This document shows, one piece after another, positions 192-10,973 of a stretch of DNA of 11,476 bases. Each line of letters opens with the position of its first letter. Positions within the stretch are counted from its first letter, which is position 1. The notes beneath the pieces are model-generated. The model made no database searches. It had not been told where the DNA came from and saw nothing but the letters and a program-made list of their open reading frames with translations. The position numbers were made by a program, and so were the translations under genes. This DNA is from Promethearchaeota archaeon (GTDB lineage Archaea; Asgardarchaeota; Lokiarchaeia; Sigynarchaeales; SOKP01). Where the stretch lies: the NCBI GenBank assembly GCA_016839905.1, contig JAEOTJ010000481.1, positions 1 through 11,476 of the forward strand, written 5' to 3'.

Positions 192-1400
192 TTAGGATCT
201 TTTCTTTTTAATAACAAAGCTGATTCCTATTATGGCAACAACTACAAGGATGCCGACAGTTAAAAGAATTATTGGAATAATGCTTATGCTTTCCTTCCTA
301 AAGAACTCATTTCCATCTTCATCTTTAAATACTACTATTGTTTGAGTTCCCATATCGCTATATGTGAATTCAATCGTGAAATCTTCTTCTGCGGTTCCAA
401 ATTCCGTGAAGTCCCCTGCCTTTACAACTACATTTACCACCATTCCCGAGCGAGTAATGTCCTTTTCACCCACTGTTTCTATAAGTTCATCAAGATATTC
501 TTTAATTGGGGTCATTCCTGCTAATCCATCACATAATTTCGAGAGGGCAAAATATTTTTTAGTAAGGGGAGTCCCTCCTGCTGAAGCTGTAATCGCAGTT
601 AGCAAAAGATTAACATTATAATCCAATGCAGCAGAGGTTCCAGCACCTAATGTGGTGTCAATTGCAAGTCGATGGTCATAATCCCACATAGCAATCATAG
701 CAGAAGCATTTAATAATGCTCCTAATGTGGCTCCTTGAGTAGATAAAACCACTGTTGATTGGGTTTCAAATGCTTTAATATCTGTATATATTGAAAAAGC
801 ATCGCTAGGGTCTTTAATTATGGGATCTTTTTTTCCTTCATGATCGGGGTTGTCCTTAAAATCATCTGTGGTATAATACCATTTATCTGTTTCGATAATG
901 AATGCCTTATAATTATTATCATACAAAGCATCTAATTCTGTTTTACTCAAGCCTGCGGAAGCGAAAATAGTGCCATTTCCACTTGTTAAAGCTGCTATTG
1001 ATGCATATCCACTAAGTCCTAGTACGTAAGCAACACCTTGGAAGGATGTATTTAGCGCTTTTAGATTCGTGTCTAACGTAATTAGAGAATCATAGGATGT
1101 CTTAACTTTAGCATCATCAAGCATATCATAGCTTTTCTCTTCCCAGCCTACTACTTTAATCTTGCTTTTTGCTCGTGCTTCATCTGCGGCCCCATCAAAA
1201 ACATCCTCTGGAGTCACACTTGTGCCCACGATATTCTCCCATTTGTCTTTGTCATATATTTTTATTTCACTTTCTACTGAAATTCCTTTAGCGGCGGAAG
1301 GAATTCCAAATGAATATTCTGTATTTGCTAGTACCGGTATGACCGCACTCAATGTAAATATTATGGTAAAAATTATGCCATAAGAATATTTTTTATTCAT
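192..1400 (-). CDS. Secreted, membrane-anchored protein of unknown function
   Basis: The 402-residue protein has a clear signal peptide: basic MNKK, a hydrophobic stretch at about 8-24 and a likely cleavage site after VLA (A25). A single membrane helix at about 375-397 is followed by the stop-transfer tail KKKRS. The bulk, 26-373, should therefore lie outside the cell, held by the C-terminal helix. The ectodomain is a mix of helix-like, Ala/Leu/Thr-rich segments (about 95-160 and 210-290) and a strand-rich part near 315-372. It has only three N-x-S/T sequons, in sharp contrast with the sequon-rich proteins at 2552-9681. I do not recognise the family and give no function. The start is well set: AGGAG lies 9 bases upstream and a TATA box about 50 bases upstream. 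The gene reads as visibly less A/T-rich than its neighbours, which together with the signals suggests good expression. An S-layer-associated or cell-surface structural role is possible but unsupported. Confidence 0.85.
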   Translation of the reverse strand: MNKKYSYGIIFTIIFTLSAVIPVLANTEYSFGIPSAAKGISVESEIKIYDKDKWENIVGTSVTPEDVFDGAADEARAKSKIKVVGWEEKSYDMLDDAKVKTSYDSLITLDTNLKALNTSFQGVAYVLGLSGYASIAALTSGNGTIFASAGLSKTELDALYDNNYKAFIIETDKWYYTTDDFKDNPDHEGKKDPIIKDPSDAFSIYTDIKAFETQSTVVLSTQGATLGALLNASAMIAMWDYDHRLAIDTTLGAGTSAALDYNVNLLLTAITASAGGTPLTKKYFALSKLCDGLAGMTPIKEYLDELIETVGEKDITRSGMVVNVVVKAGDFTEFGTAEEDFTIEFTYSDMGTQTIVVFKDEDGNEFFRKESISIIPIILLTVGILVVVAIIGISFVIKKKRS

Positions 1401-1524: not shown

Positions 1525-2208
1525 TTAAGATTTTTGTATTTTCCACGTGGTATAACCAACTATAAAAAGAGTTATAATCTCAGAATATACTACGATTTTT
1601 TGTCCTGTTGCTTGAATGAGAAGACCTTCTAACGTGTCACTACTAGGGCCAAAAAATATTAAACCTATATATGACGCAAGAATGATCTCAAATATTATAA
1701 GAGTAAGGACGTATCGATTGGGGAAATCTTTATTTAATATAAATGCAGGAATATAAAAAAGCACCATATAAAATGCGGAACCAAACGCAAGAATAACGAA
1801 TATTATGTGTGCTCCACCAAGAACATCATAAGGTGTAAATGCAATTCCGATATAACAAATCGCAGAAAATATACCTGTTATTGATCCAATAACACTAAGT
1901 TTTTGAGATATAGATTTCTTTTCCATTATTAAAGGACCTGAAATAAAAAGAGGGATAGATAACAGGCCAATAGCAATTAAAGCAATGGAAAATAGAATGT
2001 AAGAGATTAAATTACTACTACCGAGATGATTATTAACCCTTCCTAAATCACTGAAGTAATTTTCAAAGAAAGAATAGTATTTACTTGATGGATCATTAAG
2101 CGTGCCTCCACCATAAAAGATCATTGCTAAAATCGTAAGAATGGTAAATTGAGAAGCCCCTATCATCACAAGGACTCCTGACGTTTTACTCCATTCTTTT
2201 GAGTTCAT
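1525..2208 (-). CDS. DUF998-like six-helix membrane protein
   Basis: The 227-residue protein has six predicted membrane helices, at about 11-33, 67-91, 103-124, 131-157, 166-187 and 205-224. Three features fit the DUF998 (COG3371-type) family of predicted membrane proteins: the FSDLGR motif at 52-57 in the first extracytoplasmic or loop segment, a TPYD loop at 125-128 after helix 3, and a histidine at the head of helix 4 (GAH, 132-134). The match is made from memory of that pattern, not from a search. The biochemical function of the family is not known. The start at 2208 has no clear ribosome binding site. The gene lies 124 bases upstream of the start of the next minus-strand gene, which has its own promoter, so the two are probably not strictly co-transcribed. 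It is divergent from the surface-protein pair. Confidence 0.8.
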   Translation of the reverse strand: MNSKEWSKTSGVLVMIGASQFTILTILAMIFYGGGTLNDPSSKYYSFFENYFSDLGRVNNHLGSSNLISYILFSIALIAIGLLSIPLFISGPLIMEKKSISQKLSVIGSITGIFSAICYIGIAFTPYDVLGGAHIIFVILAFGSAFYMVLFYIPAFILNKDFPNRYVLTLIIFEIILASYIGLIFFGPSSDTLEGLLIQATGQKIVVYSEIITLFIVGYTTWKIQKS

Positions 2209-2507: not shown

Positions 2508-2537
2508 AATTGTGTCGAGCTAATATTAATAGGATTT

Positions 2538-2544
2538 AGAGGTG
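2538..2544 (+). promoter_or_regulatory. Strong Shine-Dalgarno site AGAGGTG that sets a non-standard ATA start
   Basis: GAGGTG is an uninterrupted six-base match to the extended archaeal ribosome binding sequence AGGAGGTGATC. It ends 7 bases before ATA at 2552. No ATG, GTG or TTG occurs in that frame between the stop at 2537-2539 and 3131, so this site points to ATA as the initiation codon. Confidence 0.7.
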
Positions 2545-2551
2545 CTCATTC

Positions 2552-5500
2552 ATAAAAAAATTAAGTAAATTTAAGATTAACAAATTAATTCCATTTTTCA
2601 GTCTAATATTTGTTACATGCTTAAGTTTTTCTGTTCTTGTTACCATCCCTATTAAAATTGAGAATTTTTTTAATTCGATTGATGATGTCCATAAGACGCC
2701 TCTAATAAAAGATTTAAAGTCTCATAAATTATCCTCAGATAATATTTATAGGGGAATTGGAAACCCTTGGAATCTAACTCATTATGCAAACCGAACTTTT
2801 TATAATCATGATGTTAGTTTTGGGAACAATTCTAATGATCTCGTTGAAATCCCGGTTCAAGGAAATTGGAAAGGAATTAAATTAAATTCTACCATAAACA
2901 ATCTTTATGATGAGAGAAATTGGTGCAATGGTACTTTTAGTCTTGGTGATGATGATGGTAATCATTCTGCTGGTGAGGATGATACTGATGATATAATAAA
3001 TAGTTTTCAGAATTGGACTTTTGGTAAAAAGGATGTTATTTGGGAGGGGGAGTCATGGGGACAGGTAGTTAATAATTTTAGTGGTAATTATAATTCAAGT
3101 TTAGAAGGGCATAATTGCTTAGAGTTAAGAATGGATGGAAATGAAACTAAATATGGTCCTGGGAGATTTTGTTATGATGAATTTGATATGTGCTGGTGGA
3201 ACACGACTTTTAAGATTCCAAGAGGGTGCGTGGTTGACAGTGAATTGCAATTTGATGCAAGGACTTTGCATATAACTAATCTAAGTGCTTGGAAACTCAA
3301 ATTCTATTTAAATGATGAGGTAATTTGCTCCATTGATACTTATAAACTAAAGCAAGATTGTGAGGGTTCCTGGAAAACCTTTACAATTCCGCAACAGTAC
3401 TGGATAAATGAAACGAATATATTTTCAAATCCAGTAAATAACTCAGAAATAAGACTCAATATTACCTTTGAATATTTGTCTTGTACAGGGTGGTGGGATA
3501 ATCCATTAGCAGATTATCAACAATTATTCATTGATAACGTTAAAATAATAACCAAAGCAGAAGCAATACCGAAACAACTCGATCTAAAAATGAATCAGAG
3601 TGAAGTTATTGGTGAAGATTGGGGTAAGGGAACAGTAAAAATAGATGGTCCTTGGCAAGCTGCTGAAATATATTGCAATTTTACGAGTGATGATGCTTGG
3701 AATTTGAGTAGTTATGATATAGAATTTAAAACCGATTTACATTTGTTTATAATAAAAGAATCTCCAGAAACAAATTATGAGACGAATTATAACTCTATTG
3801 GTATTAGTTACTCTACAAGTAATAGTAGTATAGTTGATTGTGAAGGTTATGCATATATTTCTATTCCAAATGAGTATAGACAAATGGAAATGAGAATAAA
3901 TTATCCTAAAGATGTAAACATCACTTGGATATCTAGTCCTCAATATCCAGGAACTAATCAACTGTATCAATGTAATGATTCAACACCAGGTTTATTAATA
4001 GTTCCTATATATAATATTTCAAGTACTCCTGCAGGATATTGGAAGCTACAAGGGATTTCAGCCAATTATCTTGAAAATTTAAATATTTTTAAGAATGGTA
4101 CAAATGATCCTAATAATAATGTGTGGAATTCAGAAAACACGTTTTTAAGTGGAGATTATATCAATATAACAGCAAAAATATCCAATACATCATTGATTTC
4201 TGAATATATTAATGAAACAAAAGCAACACTATATATAAAATTTCCAAATCAGACTATTTGGACACTGCAAAATCAATTTAAATCACCCGATGCTAATGGA
4301 TTTATCTTTTTTGATTATTTCCAGATACCAGAAGCCCCTCCTCATTATAAAGTTGGAGTATATGAAGCAATAATTATATGGAATAACTCTTATTCGACAT
4401 TTGGATTAAATGAATCAGGAATAATGTGTAAAAAATTCACTGTAATACATAATTCTATATTAACACCTGAACGAGCTTTATATGAAGATGTTTTTGAAGG
4501 AACAATAATAAATTTAAAGGTATCTTTCAATGATTTTTCAAATTTTAAATCCATTCAAAATGCAACGGTATATCTCGATAATTTCACAGGAGGAAGGGAA
4601 ACCTTTACTGAAACAAATCCTGGTTGTTATTTACTTGAATTTAATACAAGTAGAGGCAATTCTGGGGTTAATAATTTAACGATTTATGCAAATTCTTCCT
4701 CATATGTGAATAAAGAAGTAAATATTACTATTGAATTAATGCTACCGACTATTCTTGTGGCCAAGGAATTTCCAAGCTTGCAAGTACAATGGAACGAAAA
4801 CTTCACGATCAATCTTAACTATACTGAGAAATCTTCTGGAAATGGCATAATCTCGAATCCTATAAATAATTGGATTGGTGATAACCATTATATGATGATT
4901 TCTCCAGGAGTCTTTAATCTAACATTTAATACTTCGGCTTATGAGGTAAATAAGTTCCATTTATTAATTTTTAGTCTAAATATATCTGGATATGAAGCCC
5001 AATCTTTAGTAATTAACATACAGATTATTGAAAGAGATACATCTATAAATAAAATATTTTTGAATGGATTAGATAGAACTCTTAATAAATCTATTGATCT
5101 TCTCATAGGGACTCCTTTAAATATTACACTAAAATATATAGATATAAGCAATAGTTTGTTCATTGAAAATGTCACTGTACAATTGATTGGAGAAAGTCAT
5201 ATCGTCCCATTAACAGAAAATAAATCGTTAGAACAATATTCTATCATCTTAAATACAGATATTTTAAAAACGGGAATTAACTTTCTTACAATCTATGCAC
5301 AAAAAGATTATTATACATCATCTTCAGAACTTATTATAATAAACTTAGATAGCATTCGGGGCGAGATTAATACAGAATCCCAGGAATCTGTAATAAACAT
5401 AAAGCAAGGTGAAAGATATAAATTAAAGATTGTTTTAAATAATTTAGATTTTGGGGGAAGAATAACGGATGCTGTGGTCAAATATTATTGGGAGTTTGGA

Positions 5501-6064
5501 AGTGGAGAGCTTGAAGATTCTGATAATGATGGTATTTATGAAGTGATATTAGAGAATATCCCACAAGGTGCTTTTATAATTACTATAACTGCAATTGCTG
5601 GTGATAATTACCAATTTGAAAGTGTTGATATAACAGTAAATGTGCATAGTGATGAGGGACTTATTCTATGGATAATTATTATATTACTTATAATAACTGC
5701 CGGCGTAACTAGTATAGGTATTGCTCTAGTAAAAAGATCCAAAAAAGAATTAAGAGAGGTAAAGGCAGAACTTATGGGTTTAAAAAAGCAGAGAGATGAG
5801 ATTACTGAAGAAGATATCTTATTATCTAAAGAACAACATATTTGTTTAGTCCATAAAGGCCCTATTGAAGGATTTTTATTTATTTGTGAATGTGGTGCTT
5901 ATTATTGTGATAGATGTGTGGATGCTATTAAAGAACTAGAAAATACATGTTGGTCCTGCGGAAAACCCTTAGATCCTTTTAGACCGTCTTTAAGTCCAAA
6001 AGAAAAAGAAACTAAATCAGAAGAAGAAACAAGAGATTCCCATAAAAAAGGTCCAAGGAAATAA
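2552..6064 (+). CDS. Large single-pass surface glycoprotein with cytoplasmic B-box/RING-like zinc domain (paralog 1)
   Basis: I extend this gene 193 codons upstream of its first ATG (3131). Codons 2552-3130 are open and closely match the N-terminus of the next gene (shared LYDERNWCNGTFS and NLTH). ATA at 2552 follows GAGGTG by 7 bases. The 1,170-residue product has a signal or anchor helix at about 12-34 and an acidic, possibly Ca-binding loop at 132-147. A jelly-roll-like domain spans about 150-335, with CWWNTTF and a terminal LFIDNVKI typical of such folds, followed by a strand-rich region to about 630. Four Ig-like repeats start near 635, 733, 830 and 938; the last contains DSDNDG, a calcium-loop-like motif. 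A membrane helix (1037-1060), a short charged helix and zinc ligands C1098, H1101, C1112, C1114, C1119, C1122, C1133 and C1136 follow. About 40 N-x-S/T sequons all lie on the outside. The function is unknown; adhesion or sensing is plausible. Confidence 0.85.
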   Translation: MKKLSKFKINKLIPFFSLIFVTCLSFSVLVTIPIKIENFFNSIDDVHKTPLIKDLKSHKLSSDNIYRGIGNPWNLTHYANRTFYNHDVSFGNNSNDLVEIPVQGNWKGIKLNSTINNLYDERNWCNGTFSLGDDDGNHSAGEDDTDDIINSFQNWTFGKKDVIWEGESWGQVVNNFSGNYNSSLEGHNCLELRMDGNETKYGPGRFCYDEFDMCWWNTTFKIPRGCVVDSELQFDARTLHITNLSAWKLKFYLNDEVICSIDTYKLKQDCEGSWKTFTIPQQYWINETNIFSNPVNNSEIRLNITFEYLSCTGWWDNPLADYQQLFIDNVKIITKAEAIPKQLDLKMNQSEVIGEDWGKGTVKIDGPWQAAEIYCNFTSDDAWNLSSYDIEFKTDLHLFIIKESPETNYETNYNSIGISYSTSNSSIVDCEGYAYISIPNEYRQMEMRINYPKDVNITWISSPQYPGTNQLYQCNDSTPGLLIVPIYNISSTPAGYWKLQGISANYLENLNIFKNGTNDPNNNVWNSENTFLSGDYINITAKISNTSLISEYINETKATLYIKFPNQTIWTLQNQFKSPDANGFIFFDYFQIPEAPPHYKVGVYEAIIIWNNSYSTFGLNESGIMCKKFTVIHNSILTPERALYEDVFEGTIINLKVSFNDFSNFKSIQNATVYLDNFTGGRETFTETNPGCYLLEFNTSRGNSGVNNLTIYANSSSYVNKEVNITIELMLPTILVAKEFPSLQVQWNENFTINLNYTEKSSGNGIISNPINNWIGDNHYMMISPGVFNLTFNTSAYEVNKFHLLIFSLNISGYEAQSLVINIQIIERDTSINKIFLNGLDRTLNKSIDLLIGTPLNITLKYIDISNSLFIENVTVQLIGESHIVPLTENKSLEQYSIILNTDILKTGINFLTIYAQKDYYTSSSELIIINLDSIRGEINTESQESVINIKQGERYKLKIVLNNLDFGGRITDAVVKYYWEFGSGELEDSDNDGIYEVILENIPQGAFIITITAIAGDNYQFESVDITVNVHSDEGLILWIIIILLIITAGVTSIGIALVKRSKKELREVKAELMGLKKQRDEITEEDILLSKEQHICLVHKGPIEGFLFICECGAYYCDRCVDAIKELENTCWSCGKPLDPFRPSLSPKEKETKSEEETRDSHKKGPRK

Positions 6065-6087: not shown

Positions 6088-9000
6088 ATGAATAATATGA
6101 AAAAAATTGGGAAATGTAATAAAACAATATTGATATTTTCCATTGGAATGATAGTCTTGCTATTTATTAATTACATTCCACTTCATATAAATTCAATTAA
6201 TAATACCAATTCTATTAAAACCAATGAAAAACCATTTATTCCTACTAAAAATAATAATCTAAAATCTCAGAGAATTTCCTCAGATAATATATACGATGGT
6301 ATTGGAGTTGCATGGAATTTAACTCATTGGGCTGATCGAATGGTGAATGATACAACTATAGAATTCGGGAATAACACTCATGATAATGTAAAAATTCCTT
6401 TTGGAGTTGGTTGGGAAGCCAATAAGTTAAATGCAACAATAAATAATTTATATGATGAGAGAAATTGGTGTAATGGAACTTTCAGCTTCGATAATGATGA
6501 TGGAAGTGAAGCCGTTGGAGATGATGATACAAGTTATACTAGTGATAATAACTTTCAAAATTGGACGTTTAATAAAATTGATGAGCAAGCAGTATATACC
6601 AATGCTATGAGTGGAAATTATGTAAAAAATAAATATAGTCGTGATTGCTTGGAGTTAAGCTTGAATGGGCACTCTTTAGGGGGATCTAGATATGGATATG
6701 ATCAAGGGGATAAATGTTGGTGGAATACCTCCTTCAATATTCCTAGAGGGAAGATCATGGATAGCGAGATTCAGTTTGATGTATTAGCATCCCATTTAAT
6801 ACAAATAAATGCCTGGGAATTAAAATTCCATTTAAATGATGAAATAATTTATAATATTGGAGTCTATGACTTAAGGGAAGAATGCGGAGTAAGTGGGGCA
6901 GGTCCAGGATCTTGGACAACTATTAAAATCCCTCAAGGTATATGGATTAATACTACAAATGTTTTCTCAGATCCAGTTAATAATTCAATAATAACTCTAA
7001 ATGTTACCTTAGAGCATTCATCCCAGACATGTTGGTATGAATTCTTTTTAAATGGTCAATATCAACAACTCTTTCTCGATAATATAAAGTTAGTAACAAA
7101 AGCAGAGGCAAAACCTCAACAAATTAAATTAAAAATGAATGAGACGGATATAAATAATATAGATTGGGGTAAAGGAACTATAGAATTAGAAGGAAATTGG
7201 CAAGCTGATTATATCTATTGTAATTTTTCTAGTGACGATGTTTGGAATTTGAGCAGTTATGTTATTGAATTAAAAACCGATTTGCATCTTTTTGCGAAGA
7301 AAGGCTCTCCAGAAACTAATAATGAGACAAATTATGACTCTATTGGTACTATTTTCTCTATTAATAATGATAGTGTGGTGGAATGGGATTGTTATGCTTA
7401 CATTTCTGTTCCAAATGAGTATGAAGAAACAGAAATGAGGATAAACTTTCCTGAGGATATTAACATTACATGGATATCTTCTCCTCAAGATCCTGGGACT
7501 AATCAATTAAAGCACTGTTTTAATTCAACACCAGGACTTTTAATAGTTTCGGCGAAAAATATAACGACGATATCTAATGGTTACTGGAGGTTGAAAGGAA
7601 TTTCAAATAATTATTTAGATCAATTAGATCTTTTCAAAAATGGTACAAGTAATCCTAATGATAATATATGGAATCCAGAGAACTCCTTTTTAAGTGGAGA
7701 CTATATAAATATTACAGCAAAAATTACGGATTCTCCATTAATTTCTGGATATATAAATAAGACAAAAGCAAGCCTTTATATTAGATTTCCAAATGGCACG
7801 ATTTGGACCGCATTAGATCAATCAAAATCACCAGATGCAAATGGATATATATATTTTGATTATTTTAAAATACCGACCTCATCTCCTAATTATGTGGTAG
7901 GGAAGTATGAAGCAATTATTACATGGAATAATTCTTATTCTTCATTTGGATTAAATGAAACGGGTGTTATATGCAAAGAATTCACTGTAATACATGATTC
8001 GATATTATCATCTGAACAAGTCTTTTATGAAGATTATTTTAATGGAGATATAATAAATTTAAAGATATTATTCAATGATATTGATAATTTGGAAGCAATA
8101 GAAGATGCTAAAATATATCTTGATGATTTCATTGGAGGAAGGCAATTTTTCAGTGAAATAAGTCCAGGTTATTATTTTCTTGAGTTTAATACTAGTGGAG
8201 GAATTCAAGGCAATAATTCATTAACTATCTATGCTAATTCATCTTATTATAATAATAAAGAGTTAAATGTTACTATTGAACTAGTTAATCAAACTCTCCT
8301 TTCAGCTGAGGAATATCCAAGTATTCAAGTTCCATGGAATGAGAATTTTACAATCCATCTTAATTATACAGAGAAATCTTCTGGTATTGGTATTATCACT
8401 AATCCTACAAATAACTGGGATGGTGAAACTTTTACGATTATGGAAGTTCCTGGTATTTATAATATAACACTTAATAGTTCCGAATACAACATTAATACTC
8501 TTCATTCGTTAATTATAAACACAAAAACAACAGGATATGAAACGCAATCAATATTAATAAATGTTTTAATCATTGAAAGAGATATATCGATAAATGAGAT
8601 TTATTTGAATGGTTTAAATAAAACAATCGATAAATCCATTGAACTTCCTATAGGCAGTTTTTTAAATATTACAATGAAATATACTGATTTATTAACTGGA
8701 TTTAATATAGATAATGCCACAGTTCAACTAATAGGAGAAGGTCTTACAGAAAGCCTAAAAGAAAACAAAACTTATAAACAATATTCAATTATTCTCAACA
8801 CTACTAAATTAAATACAACAGGAATTAAATTCCTAAAAATCTACGCCCAAAAAACAAATTTTTCTATAAGTTCAACACTTATTAGAATTGATTTAGAGAA
8901 TATTAGAGCTGAAATTATCACACAATCACGTAAATCTGTAGTTAATATTGAGCCAGGTGATAGTTATACTTTAAAAATTATTTTAAATGATTTAATTTTT

Positions 9001-9681
9001 AGCCGAAACATAAAAAATGCTACTGTTTATTATTATTGGGAATTTGGAAGTGGAGAAATTAAAGATTCTAACAGCGATGGTGTTTATGAAATCACCTTAA
9101 GTGAGATCCCTAAAGGTACATTTACTATTACAATCACAGCTATCGCTGGAAATGATTATCAATTTGATAGTTATAAAATTACAATAAATGCTCAAATACC
9201 TGAAGAAGAAGAATCTTACCTTTGGCTCATTCTTTTGTTACTAAGTATAATCGCTATAATTTCTATGATAGGAATCGGAATTTTAATAAAGTCCAAAAAG
9301 GAAATTAGAGAAAAGGAATCAGAAATAGCTCTTTTAAGGATTCAGAGAGGAGAAATTACGGAAGATGATATCCTTCTATCAAAAGAAAGGCATTTCTGTT
9401 TAGTTCATAAAGGTCCTATTGAAGGATATATTTTTAGATGTGAATGTGGAGCTTTCTACTGCGATCCTTGTATGGATAAAATTCAGGAACTCGAAAATGA
9501 ATGCTGGTCTTGCGGAATACACTTGATAATTCCTAAATTAAAAGGAAAACATCGAAAAGAACGCATATTAATACCTGATAGAATAATCTCCTTAAATAAA
9601 GTAAAGGATTGGCGTAGAAGTATTGGAGAAAAAACCCCGCAGAAAAAACTTAATAAAGAAAATAAAGAAATTGATTCATAA
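6088..9681 (+). CDS. Large single-pass surface glycoprotein with cytoplasmic B-box/RING-like zinc domain (paralog 2)
   Basis: The 1,197-residue protein has the same plan as its upstream neighbour. It carries an N-terminal hydrophobic anchor or signal at about 13-31, an acidic loop at 135-147 and a jelly-roll-like domain containing CWWNTSF and ending in LFLDNIKL. A middle region precedes four Ig-like repeats starting near 638, 736, 833 and 942. A membrane helix lies at about 1044-1067, then a short charged helix with the conserved EITEDDILLSKE. The zinc ligands are C1104, H1107, C1118, C1120, C1125, C1128, C1139 and C1142. Around 40 N-x-S/T sequons lie outside; the zinc domain has none. After it comes a basic 55-residue tail, longer than and unlike that of paralog 1. 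The gene starts 23 bases after the neighbour's stop, without its own promoter or a clear ribosome binding site, so the two form an operon; the ATG at 6097 (residue 4) is an alternative start. The molecular function is unknown; a cell-surface receptor or adhesin signalling through the zinc domain is a hypothesis. Confidence 0.9.
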   Translation: MNNMKKIGKCNKTILIFSIGMIVLLFINYIPLHINSINNTNSIKTNEKPFIPTKNNNLKSQRISSDNIYDGIGVAWNLTHWADRMVNDTTIEFGNNTHDNVKIPFGVGWEANKLNATINNLYDERNWCNGTFSFDNDDGSEAVGDDDTSYTSDNNFQNWTFNKIDEQAVYTNAMSGNYVKNKYSRDCLELSLNGHSLGGSRYGYDQGDKCWWNTSFNIPRGKIMDSEIQFDVLASHLIQINAWELKFHLNDEIIYNIGVYDLREECGVSGAGPGSWTTIKIPQGIWINTTNVFSDPVNNSIITLNVTLEHSSQTCWYEFFLNGQYQQLFLDNIKLVTKAEAKPQQIKLKMNETDINNIDWGKGTIELEGNWQADYIYCNFSSDDVWNLSSYVIELKTDLHLFAKKGSPETNNETNYDSIGTIFSINNDSVVEWDCYAYISVPNEYEETEMRINFPEDINITWISSPQDPGTNQLKHCFNSTPGLLIVSAKNITTISNGYWRLKGISNNYLDQLDLFKNGTSNPNDNIWNPENSFLSGDYINITAKITDSPLISGYINKTKASLYIRFPNGTIWTALDQSKSPDANGYIYFDYFKIPTSSPNYVVGKYEAIITWNNSYSSFGLNETGVICKEFTVIHDSILSSEQVFYEDYFNGDIINLKILFNDIDNLEAIEDAKIYLDDFIGGRQFFSEISPGYYFLEFNTSGGIQGNNSLTIYANSSYYNNKELNVTIELVNQTLLSAEEYPSIQVPWNENFTIHLNYTEKSSGIGIITNPTNNWDGETFTIMEVPGIYNITLNSSEYNINTLHSLIINTKTTGYETQSILINVLIIERDISINEIYLNGLNKTIDKSIELPIGSFLNITMKYTDLLTGFNIDNATVQLIGEGLTESLKENKTYKQYSIILNTTKLNTTGIKFLKIYAQKTNFSISSTLIRIDLENIRAEIITQSRKSVVNIEPGDSYTLKIILNDLIFSRNIKNATVYYYWEFGSGEIKDSNSDGVYEITLSEIPKGTFTITITAIAGNDYQFDSYKITINAQIPEEEESYLWLILLLLSIIAIISMIGIGILIKSKKEIREKESEIALLRIQRGEITEDDILLSKERHFCLVHKGPIEGYIFRCECGAFYCDPCMDKIQELENECWSCGIHLIIPKLKGKHRKERILIPDRIISLNKVKDWRRSIGEKTPQKKLNKENKEIDS

Positions 9682-9763: not shown

Positions 9764-9785
9764 CTGAAAAAAAAATGGTTTGATT

Positions 9786-10973
9786 ATGGTTAAAATTGAT
9801 AATATTAAAACTTTTTCTGTCATTGGAGCTGGAACGATGGGTCGTGAAATTGCTGAAGTTGCTCTGATGGCGGGATTCAAAAAAGTAATATTGAATGATA
9901 CTAATAAAGAGGTTCTTGAAAAAGCTGAGAATTATATCAGAGAAGGTCTAAAAAAGCTGGATGCTAAAGGTAAATTGGGAAGTTTTAATACAGTAGATTA
10001 TCTTATGGGAAATTTATTTAAAGAATTAGACTTGAAAAAAGCAGTGGAAAATTCTGATTTTGTAGTTGAAGCGATACCTGAGATAATGGAATTGAAACAA
10101 AACTTATTTAAACAATTATGTAAATACGCTCCTGAACATGCAATTTTAACCACCAATACATCGACCATAAGCATTACTGAAATAGCTTCTGCTTCAGGGT
10201 GTCCTGATAGAATAGTAGGAATGCATTTTTTTATTCCTGTCCCTGTTCTTAGATTAATTGAAGTAATTAAGGGGAAAAAGACTTCTGAAGATACTATTAA
10301 TATTTGCATTGCAGTTGGTCAAAAATTCCCTGCTCTTAAAGGAAAGAAATTTTTGGCTCGTATTGAAAAAGAAAGCCCGGGATTTATAGTAAATCGATTA
10401 ACAATTACGGGGAACCTCTATTTAAGTTGGCTTCTTGATGAGGCAATGGAAAAAGGAATACCATATGAACAAATTGATGCGGATGCTGGATTCTTACAAG
10501 GATTAGGTCCATATGCTAAATGGGATTATTTAGGACTTGATGTAGTTTATAATACTCATAAATATTTGGAAGAAAATCTTTCTCCAGAATTTGCTCCCGG
10601 TAAAACTATTACAAAATTAGTTAAAGAAGGGAATATGGGAAGAAAAACCGGAAAAGGTCTTTATGAATGGATTGATGGAAATCCAAAAGTAGATAAAACC
10701 ATAAAGGCAGGATTATTTAATCCCGAATTATTCTTGGCGATTCAATTAAATGAAGGTTGTAGGCTTTTAGAAGAGGGCATCGTTTCCAATTATAAAATCA
10801 TTGATGATGCGATGTTTGCTGGAATGGATATTCCTGGACCATTTGGACCAGGAAAAAAAAATTACCAAAAATGGTCAAAAATGTTGGAAGATCTCATGGA
10901 AGAGTCTGGTATTCAACATTTTAAACCATGCTATTTAATGAAATCTGGTGAATTTTTAAAAAGGAGAAAATAA
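9786..10973 (+). CDS. 3-hydroxyacyl-CoA dehydrogenase
   Basis: The enzyme oxidises (S)-3-hydroxyacyl-CoA to 3-oxoacyl-CoA with NAD+, in fatty acid beta-oxidation or its reverse, in the cytoplasm. The 395-residue protein has an N-terminal Rossmann fold with GAGTMG at 14-19, and D38 at the end of the second strand, which favours NAD over NADP. The catalytic set of the family is present: S126 (in NTS), H147, E159, and N203 in PGFIVNRL. The C-terminal dimerisation domain follows (about 200-295, ending MGRKTGKGLYEW), then a second, shorter copy of that domain (about 312-375, with PGPFGPG). One oddity is MHFFIPVP where most relatives have HFFNPVP, so I150 replaces a usually conserved Asn next to the catalytic His. 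I choose ATG 9786 over the TTG at 9780 because the TATA box fits it and MVKIDNIK is a normal start. No hydratase or thiolase gene is visible beside it. The symbol is left blank because hbd and fadB-type paralogs cannot be told apart here. Confidence 0.93.
   Translation: MVKIDNIKTFSVIGAGTMGREIAEVALMAGFKKVILNDTNKEVLEKAENYIREGLKKLDAKGKLGSFNTVDYLMGNLFKELDLKKAVENSDFVVEAIPEIMELKQNLFKQLCKYAPEHAILTTNTSTISITEIASASGCPDRIVGMHFFIPVPVLRLIEVIKGKKTSEDTINICIAVGQKFPALKGKKFLARIEKESPGFIVNRLTITGNLYLSWLLDEAMEKGIPYEQIDADAGFLQGLGPYAKWDYLGLDVVYNTHKYLEENLSPEFAPGKTITKLVKEGNMGRKTGKGLYEWIDGNPKVDKTIKAGLFNPELFLAIQLNEGCRLLEEGIVSNYKIIDDAMFAGMDIPGPFGPGKKNYQKWSKMLEDLMEESGIQHFKPCYLMKSGEFLKRRK

What the first reader, a model, noticed from the sequence alone, without database searches (positions are those of the whole stretch)
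2552..3130. Surface-protein gene that appears to start at ATA, with 193 codons hidden from ATG-based gene calling
In the frame of the 3131-6064 gene, codons back to 2540 are open and encode a signal or anchor helix plus about 150 residues collinear with the N-terminus of the downstream paralog. No ATG, GTG or TTG occurs in frame in that stretch. A six-base Shine-Dalgarno match, GAGGTG, ends 7 bases before ATA at 2552, and that is exactly where a start is expected. Either the gene truly uses the rare ATA initiation codon, which could keep its expression low, or an ATG has mutated to ATA, or one base is wrong in the assembly. Without this extension the protein would lack its export signal.
Basis: seen in the sequence. 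Interest (0 to 1): 0.8.

Follow-up and report, generated by a model that had tools for sequence, protein, structure and literature searches.

The report
Lokiarchaeal surface-protein gene starting at ATA
A surface-protein gene of an uncultured Asgard archaeon appears to begin at the codon ATA instead of ATG, and related genomes show the same kind of start in other genes, kept across species, which standard gene-finding programs do not look for.

Summary
Frame 2540-6064 is open, holds no ATG/GTG/TTG before 3131, and GAGGTG (2539-2544) ends 7 nt before ATA 2552. The 193 hidden codons match the N-termini of 84 of 86 retrieved family proteins; in the most similar relatives the codon aligned with ATA is a TTG start, equally far from the preceding stop. 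Following this outward: in 2.28 Mb of three Lokiarchaeota genomes, ORFs with no canonical start near their 5' end carry a Shine-Dalgarno match before in-frame ATA/ATT/ATC far more often than before other codons (29/795 versus 18/4111, p = 2e-12; not in the other frames), and in each genome separately. For three other genes, 62 orthologous starts read by eye gave ATA/ATT/ATC in 29, ATG/GTG in 32, ACG in 1; one gene keeps ATA in 13 species. So this ATA is very probably the real start, one case of an AUA/AUU/AUC initiation habit in Lokiarchaeia that my eight paper searches did not turn up. There were no reads, proteomics or ribosome data: the base itself and initiation with methionine remain unproven.

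The parts
2537..2539 (+). in-frame stop TAG that bounds the frame upstream
2539..2544 (+). Shine-Dalgarno match GAGGTG, 7 nt before the start codon
   Evidence: 6-base match
2552..2554 (+). ATA, proposed start codon; the aligned codon is TTG in the most similar relatives L002 and L021
2552..3130 (+). 193 codons missed by ATG/GTG/TTG-based calling: basic N-terminus, hydrophobic helix (export signal or anchor, my reading of the sequence), start of the conserved region
2552..6064 (+). whole proposed gene, 1170 aa; by reading, an exported protein with a C-terminal membrane helix (from about 5666) and a cysteine-rich tail (5843-5962)
   Evidence: no Pfam match; topology not predicted by a tool
3131..3133 (+). 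first canonical in-frame start (ATG), the start listed for this gene when ATG, GTG and TTG alone are allowed
   Evidence: P0001
2554..2560 (+). run of seven A; an indel here is the basis of the frameshift rival
6088..9681 (+). downstream paralog with an ordinary ATG start

Best explanation
ATA 2552 is the real start codon of a 1170-residue exported protein of an archaeon related to Lokiarchaeia. The ribosome is placed by pairing of 16S rRNA with GAGGTG, and the ordinary methionyl initiator tRNA is accepted on AUA despite a mismatch at the third codon position. This is not an oddity of one gene: in the three Lokiarchaeota genomes surveyed, AUA, AUU and AUC behind a Shine-Dalgarno sequence start roughly 2% of genes, in exchange with AUG and GUG at orthologous sites. 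Shown: the open frame, the homology, the SD position, the statistical excess, the cross-species conservation. Inferred: that Met is inserted, that initiation uses the usual tRNA, and that relaxed third-position discrimination is the cause.
For: Aligned TTG start, four codons after the stop in both, in L002 and L021. SD>=5 before in-frame AUH 29/795 versus 18/4111 other codons, p=1.8e-12; SD>=6: 12/795 versus 3/4111; no AUH excess in frames +1 and +2; AAT 0/398, AAA 0/565, AAG 0/122. Separately G010 14/440 v 11/2200, G007 9/153 v 3/753, G014 6/194 v 3/1129. Inside genes AUH shows no SD excess: 171/15015 v 1495/126680. Three genes, orthologs read: A ATA 4, ATT 1, ATG 7 of 12; B ATA 13, ATT 1, ATG 15, GTG 2, ACG 1 of 32; C ATA 9, ATC 1, ATG 7, GTG 1 of 18 (C's G047 read by eye). 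SD>=5 in 28/28 scored AUH sites versus 9/32 canonical ones. G050 has ATA in B and C on a 3.34-Mb contig. In 5 of 10 AUH-led proteins scanned, a Pfam domain begins before the first canonical start: Ras from residue 10 (first canonical codon 23), Gtr1_RagA 2 (15), receiver domain 8 (74), DsrE 8 (24), FkbM 90 (105).
Against: No reads for the window; the contig's protein is a singleton in the database, so the base is unchecked. No relative read has ATA in this very gene. Start codons of A, B, C were assigned by eye, and the genes were picked because one genome had SD+AUH, so 3 of the 28 are circular, and orthologs are not independent events. Gene A's ATA sits at a longer SD spacing and is not among the 29; its neighbouring AGC counts among the 18 others. 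In C, G060 and G012 have an in-frame GTG inside the SD, so their ATA is ambiguous; B's G059 has ACG with an in-frame GTG upstream. Codons one step from ATG other than AUH (CTG, AAG, ACG, AGG) give 2/173 with SD>=5, against AUH p=0.06: by itself weak. G020 (200 kb) 1/43 v 1/277, not significant; replicate on other loci 1/54 v 1/234, no power. Of the 10 Pfam scans, 3 domains do not need the AUH start (L096, L123, L174) and 2 proteins had none. tRNA and aIF1 gave no molecular cause.
Confidence: 0.85

Rival explanations
1. One base is wrong in the assembly (or a minor population allele): the true codon is a canonical start.
For: No reads; contig unique in the protein database. Relatives have TTG or ATG here.
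Against: It cannot explain the class-wide pattern: ATA is kept at one site in 13 species. Random errors should also produce CTG, AAG, ACG and AGG behind an SD; these give 2/173 against 29/795 for AUH, in the expected direction but p=0.06 alone. None of this tests the window's own base.
Confidence: 0.07
2. A frameshift: the A7 run 2554-2560 carries an extra base (error, or slippage during transcription), and the gene begins at GTG 2542 in another frame.
For: Homopolymer of seven A; GTG 2542 lies one frame off.
Against: GTG 2542 is part of the GAGGTG match itself; the window aligns codon for codon, without a gap, to L002 from the start codon on.
Confidence: 0.03
3. The gene is a decaying paralog: the start codon was lost and the long ORF is a young pseudogene or is translated only from ATG 3131.
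For: First canonical start lies 193 codons in; the intact paralog is next door.
Against: 1170 codons stay open, with the C-terminal cysteine motif shared with the paralog; a start at 3131 would drop the hydrophobic N-terminal helix; the SD match is intact and well spaced.
Confidence: 0.05

Closest known systems
AUU start of E. coli infC (initiation factor IF3)
   Same: Non-AUG start with a third-position mismatch behind a Shine-Dalgarno sequence (recalled); my scan recovered infC as its only in-frame AUH hit in 200 kb of E. coli K-12.
   Different: In E. coli this is an isolated, autoregulated case (recalled); here the excess is spread over many genes, with ATA 13, ATT 12, ATC 4. pcnB, the other AUU gene (recalled), lay in the scanned stretch and was not picked up.
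AUA/AUU/AUC as listed alternative starts of NCBI table 11 (recalled)
   Same: Same codons; PMC5397173 (passages read) accepted annotated AUA/AUU/AUC starts in its gene sets.
   Different: No class-wide habit or cross-species conservation is described in the passages read.
AUG, GUG, UUG starts of archaeal mRNAs (review PMC7531240)
   Same: SD-led initiation; GUG and UUG are also mismatch starts. [quoted passage not shown]
   Different: AUA has no occurrence in that review's main text; it also suggests that SD is not prevalent at the annotated starts of a Lokiarchaeote.
Mitochondrial AUA/AUU initiation (recalled)
   Same: Same codons used as starts.
   Different: There AUA is usually read as Met throughout (recalled); here AUA stands at a conserved Ile position inside gene B and a tRNA-Ile(UAU) gene is present in G007.

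Membership tests
SD-led initiation at AUA/AUU/AUC (infC-like non-AUG start) | no AUG/GUG/UUG available in frame where translation must begin | tested here: met
SD-led initiation at AUA/AUU/AUC (infC-like non-AUG start) | Shine-Dalgarno match at working distance | tested here: met
   6-base match, 7 nt
SD-led initiation at AUA/AUU/AUC (infC-like non-AUG start) | start codon at the homologous position in relatives | tested here: met
   TTG in L002, L021 at the aligned codon
SD-led initiation at AUA/AUU/AUC (infC-like non-AUG start) | ATA itself conserved in orthologs of this gene | tested here: not met
   none of the relatives read has ATA in this gene; conserved ATA was shown for three other genes
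SD-led initiation at AUA/AUU/AUC (infC-like non-AUG start) | N-terminal methionine in the protein made | not testable with these tools
   needs proteomics or ribosome profiling
infC-type autoregulation by a start-codon-discriminating factor | gene product controls start-codon discrimination | tested here: inconclusive
   product looks like a surface protein and has no Pfam match, so a role as initiation factor is unlikely; regulation itself was not tested
Promethearchaeota surface-type protein family (unnamed) | long similarity including the N-terminal region | tested here: met
   86 hits, 30-57% identity apart from the window's own ATG-3131 protein; 84 of 86 match the N-terminal extension

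The most novel reading that the evidence does not exclude
Lokiarchaeia have an enlarged start-codon set: AUA, AUU and AUC serve as routine, SD-dependent start codons in about 2% of genes, are kept at the same site through speciation, and exchange with AUG and GUG, which implies an initiation machinery with weak third-position discrimination in close relatives of eukaryotes. Current gene models of these genomes would be truncated or missing at such genes.
Probability: 0.78. Interest if true: 0.85.

Novelty: new variant of a known kind. Interest (0 to 1): 0.77.

Why it matters
Start codon choice is a core rule of gene expression. A lineage-wide use of AUA/AUU/AUC in Asgard archaea would bear on how start-codon selection evolved towards eukaryotes, make a prediction testable with aIF1, aIF2 and initiator tRNA of Lokiarchaeia, and mean that protein sets of these genomes, used for eukaryote-origin studies, carry systematic N-terminal errors. 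As a hint, of the 120 database hits listed (of 4263) for one such gene, 26 begin inside the first strand of the domain.

Tried and rejected
Unconditional genome-wide count of SD+codon: dominated by SD-like words inside genes; ATA 107 observed against 94 expected, p=0.11. Replaced by the test restricted to ORFs lacking a canonical start near the 5' end.

Pairwise ortholog test within the three genomes: 1044 pairs, 33 with no canonical start near the aligned site; the aligned codon was AUH in 8 of 33, the rest scattered, many of them repeated rows of the same two ABC ATPases and one GTPase. Supportive only for single genes (G010_115 ATA against ATG in G014).

Replicate on loci L001-L074: 122 genes, 288 codons, no power. 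G020: 26 regions, not significant. In the E. coli control the out-of-frame counts were 2/43 and 2/36 AUH (p 0.12 and 0.07), so single hits of this kind occur by chance.

Gene L103 (ATC): no match but itself in 83 genomes at E 1e-30, so not testable. The first genome-contig scan with the single protein found no relative; the second, with an alignment, found 21 loci.

Variant initiator tRNA: an initiator-type anticodon arm (motif recalled) was found in 25 of 83 genomes, among them G043, G051 and G058 that have ATA in gene B; forms with another base 34 in 13 of 83, no clearer than the reversed-pattern control. Most genomes matched neither, so this is inconclusive (tRNA introns are one recalled reason). 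aIF1 (SUI1) was found in 4 of 5 genomes, one match each, none in G007, and read for two; nothing decisive seen. The share of AUH among strong-SD starts near predicted gene starts (28-30%) is inflated by background and is not used.

Considered and rejected: AUA read as Met throughout (AUA stands at an Ile position in orthologs); A-to-I editing of AUA (does not explain AUU and AUC).

Literature: eight of ten searches used; no listed title or abstract beginning reports AUA/AUU/AUC starts in Asgard archaea. Seen: those listings; passages of PMC7531240, PMC11834397 (an ATG-to-ATA start SNP in nadA of an engineered strain) and PMC5397173. No whole paper was read; most subscription papers and bioRxiv are not in the library.

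Full report
The observation. The frame of the 3131-6064 gene stays open back to a TAG at 2537-2539 and contains no ATG, GTG or TTG before 3131. GAGGTG at 2539-2544 ends 7 nt before ATA 2552. The 193 codons from ATA to 3130 encode a basic N-terminus, a hydrophobic helix and the first part of a conserved region (my reading; no topology program was run). They match 84 of the 86 proteins found with the full-length query, one of them the window's own downstream paralog (47% over 185 residues). Where sources name the hits, they are MAGs of Promethearchaeota (Asgard) lineages. The window's protein is a singleton in the database, and no whole genome is held for it.

The start codon of this gene. Loci from 17 genomes, titled Lokiarchaeota, Lokiarchaeia or Prometheoarchaeum, were read at their N-termini. 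The most similar N-termini, L002 and L021, read TAA AGT GAA TTT ATT TTG AAA AAA; the window reads TAG AGG TGC TCA TTC ATA AAA AAA. Stop-to-start distance and the following codons correspond one to one, and ATA takes the place of the TTG start. L003, L020, L010, L004 and L017 also have a TTG near this site; most others have ATG. None of those read has ATA. So the position is right, and a canonical start stands there in relatives.

Is ATA a real start in such organisms? I took 2.276 Mb from three Lokiarchaeota genomes: G010 (isolate CSMAG_2237), G007 (LW60_4) and G014 (LW40_87) (names; DNA). Codon usage gave 1448 coding ORFs. In ORFs with ten or more codons between the stop and the first ATG/GTG/TTG, I asked which in-frame codons follow a Shine-Dalgarno match of five or more bases at working distance. 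ATA/ATT/ATC: 29 of 795. All other codons: 18 of 4111 (p = 1.8e-12). With six or more bases: 12 of 795 against 3 of 4111. The other two frames give 2/723 against 39/3426 and 5/439 against 51/3728. Codons of like composition give none or one (AAT 0/398, AAA 0/565, TTA 1/330). The excess over background is about 25 genes, 1.8% of the 1448 ORFs. Each genome shows it separately. Gene interiors do not (171/15015 against 1495/126680).

Controls. Bacillus phage G (200 kb, GC 0.30) gave 0/62 against 1/434. E. coli K-12 (200 kb, chosen to include infC and pcnB) gave 1/44 against 7/663 in frame, and the one hit is the annotated start of infC, known to be AUU (recalled; position). pcnB was not picked up, and out of frame E. 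coli gave 2/43 and 2/36, so single hits do occur by chance. One further genome of the class, G020 (200 kb), gave 1/43 against 1/277, which decides nothing. Codons one step from ATG other than AUH gave 2/173, against AUH p = 0.06 alone.

What the genes are. Ten AUH-led proteins were scanned with Pfam. In five a domain begins before the first canonical start: a Ras-like GTPase (ATT; residue 10 against codon 23), a Rag-like GTPase (ATT; 2 against 15), a response regulator (ATA; 8 against 74), a DsrE-like protein (ATA behind GAGGTGA; 8 against 24) and an FkbM methyltransferase (ATT; 90 against 105). In three the domain lies further in, one of them an ABC ATPase with ATC behind GAGGTGA; two had no match. 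A 3-hydroxyacyl-CoA dehydrogenase in G016 (L073) has its first canonical start inside the GxGxxG motif, and ATA behind AGGTG lies where relatives start.

Conservation across species. For three genes I fetched about 130 bases around orthologous starts and assigned the start by eye. Gene A (410 aa; 69 of 83 genomes match, 12 read): ATA in G010, G017, G003, G002, ATT in G029, ATG in seven more distant genomes. Gene B (DsrE-like; 64 of 83 match, 33 taken, 32 readable): ATA 13, ATT 1, GTG 2, ATG 15, ACG 1 (G059, ambiguous). Gene C (response regulator; 25 of 83 match, 18 read): ATA 9 (two with an in-frame GTG inside the SD, one read by eye), ATC 1, ATG 7, GTG 1. Some ATG starts lie a few codons off the aligned column. 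Where no canonical start stood at the place, the aligned codon was ATA, ATT or ATC in 29 of 30, although the codons before it differ between species. AUH sites have an SD of five or more in 28 of 28 scored cases, canonical sites in 9 of 32 (p = 1.7e-9; three of the 28 are the chosen references, and orthologs are related by descent). Gene A's ATA has a longer SD spacing and is not one of the 29. G050 carries ATA in genes B and C on a 3.34-Mb contig. Of the 46 genomes read for at least one gene, 24 have AUH in at least one, two of these (G060, G012) only at the ambiguous sites.

Interpretation. Sequencing error cannot explain a codon kept in 13 species. The pattern is what a weak but accepted start would show: a third-position mismatch with the initiator anticodon, tolerated where the SD is strong. 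AUA stands at an Ile position inside gene B, and G007 has a tRNA-Ile(UAU), so this looks like a property of initiation and not a changed code. The cause in the machinery (aIF1, aIF2, initiator tRNA, ribosome) is open; what I looked at was inconclusive.

Back to the window. ATA 2552 with a 6-base SD at 7 nt fits this habit. I judge it the true start with about 85% confidence. Not shown: the base itself in reads, methionine at the N-terminus, and any effect on expression level.

Noticed in passing
L116:10857-10935 (G007): tRNA-Ile with anticodon UAU in a stretch with 27 tRNA genes; most archaea are said to read AUA with a modified CAU anticodon (recalled).
   Followed up: partly
window 9780-10973; G004:C242, G006:C87, G007:C16, G008:C61, G009:C114, G011:C199, G014:C21: A 3-hydroxyacyl-CoA dehydrogenase gene lies within about 2 to 6 kb of members of this surface-protein family, as in the window, in at least these 7 of 17 genomes.
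   Followed up: no
L073:1498-1500 (G016): The 3-hydroxyacyl-CoA dehydrogenase of G016 seems itself to start at ATA; the first canonical start falls inside the GxGxxG motif.
   Followed up: partly
P0087-P0206: 26 of the 120 listed database hits for the DsrE-like protein start inside the first strand (MLYVQ, MYVQ, LYVQ, MQTS), as expected if callers miss an upstream non-canonical start; not checked gene by gene.
   Followed up: partly
window 5843-5962 and 9397-9516: Both paralogs carry the same cysteine-rich tail after a hydrophobic helix (CLVHKGPIEG...CECGA.YCD.C...CWSCG); no Pfam family was reported for it.
   Followed up: no
G010:C4:139593-145907: A family member with a 2177-aa open frame whose N-terminal match is separated from the rest by a long insertion.
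   Followed up: no
window 192-1400 and 1525-2208, minus strand: Two genes, by reading membrane or surface proteins, without Pfam matches, divergent from the ATA gene.
   Followed up: no
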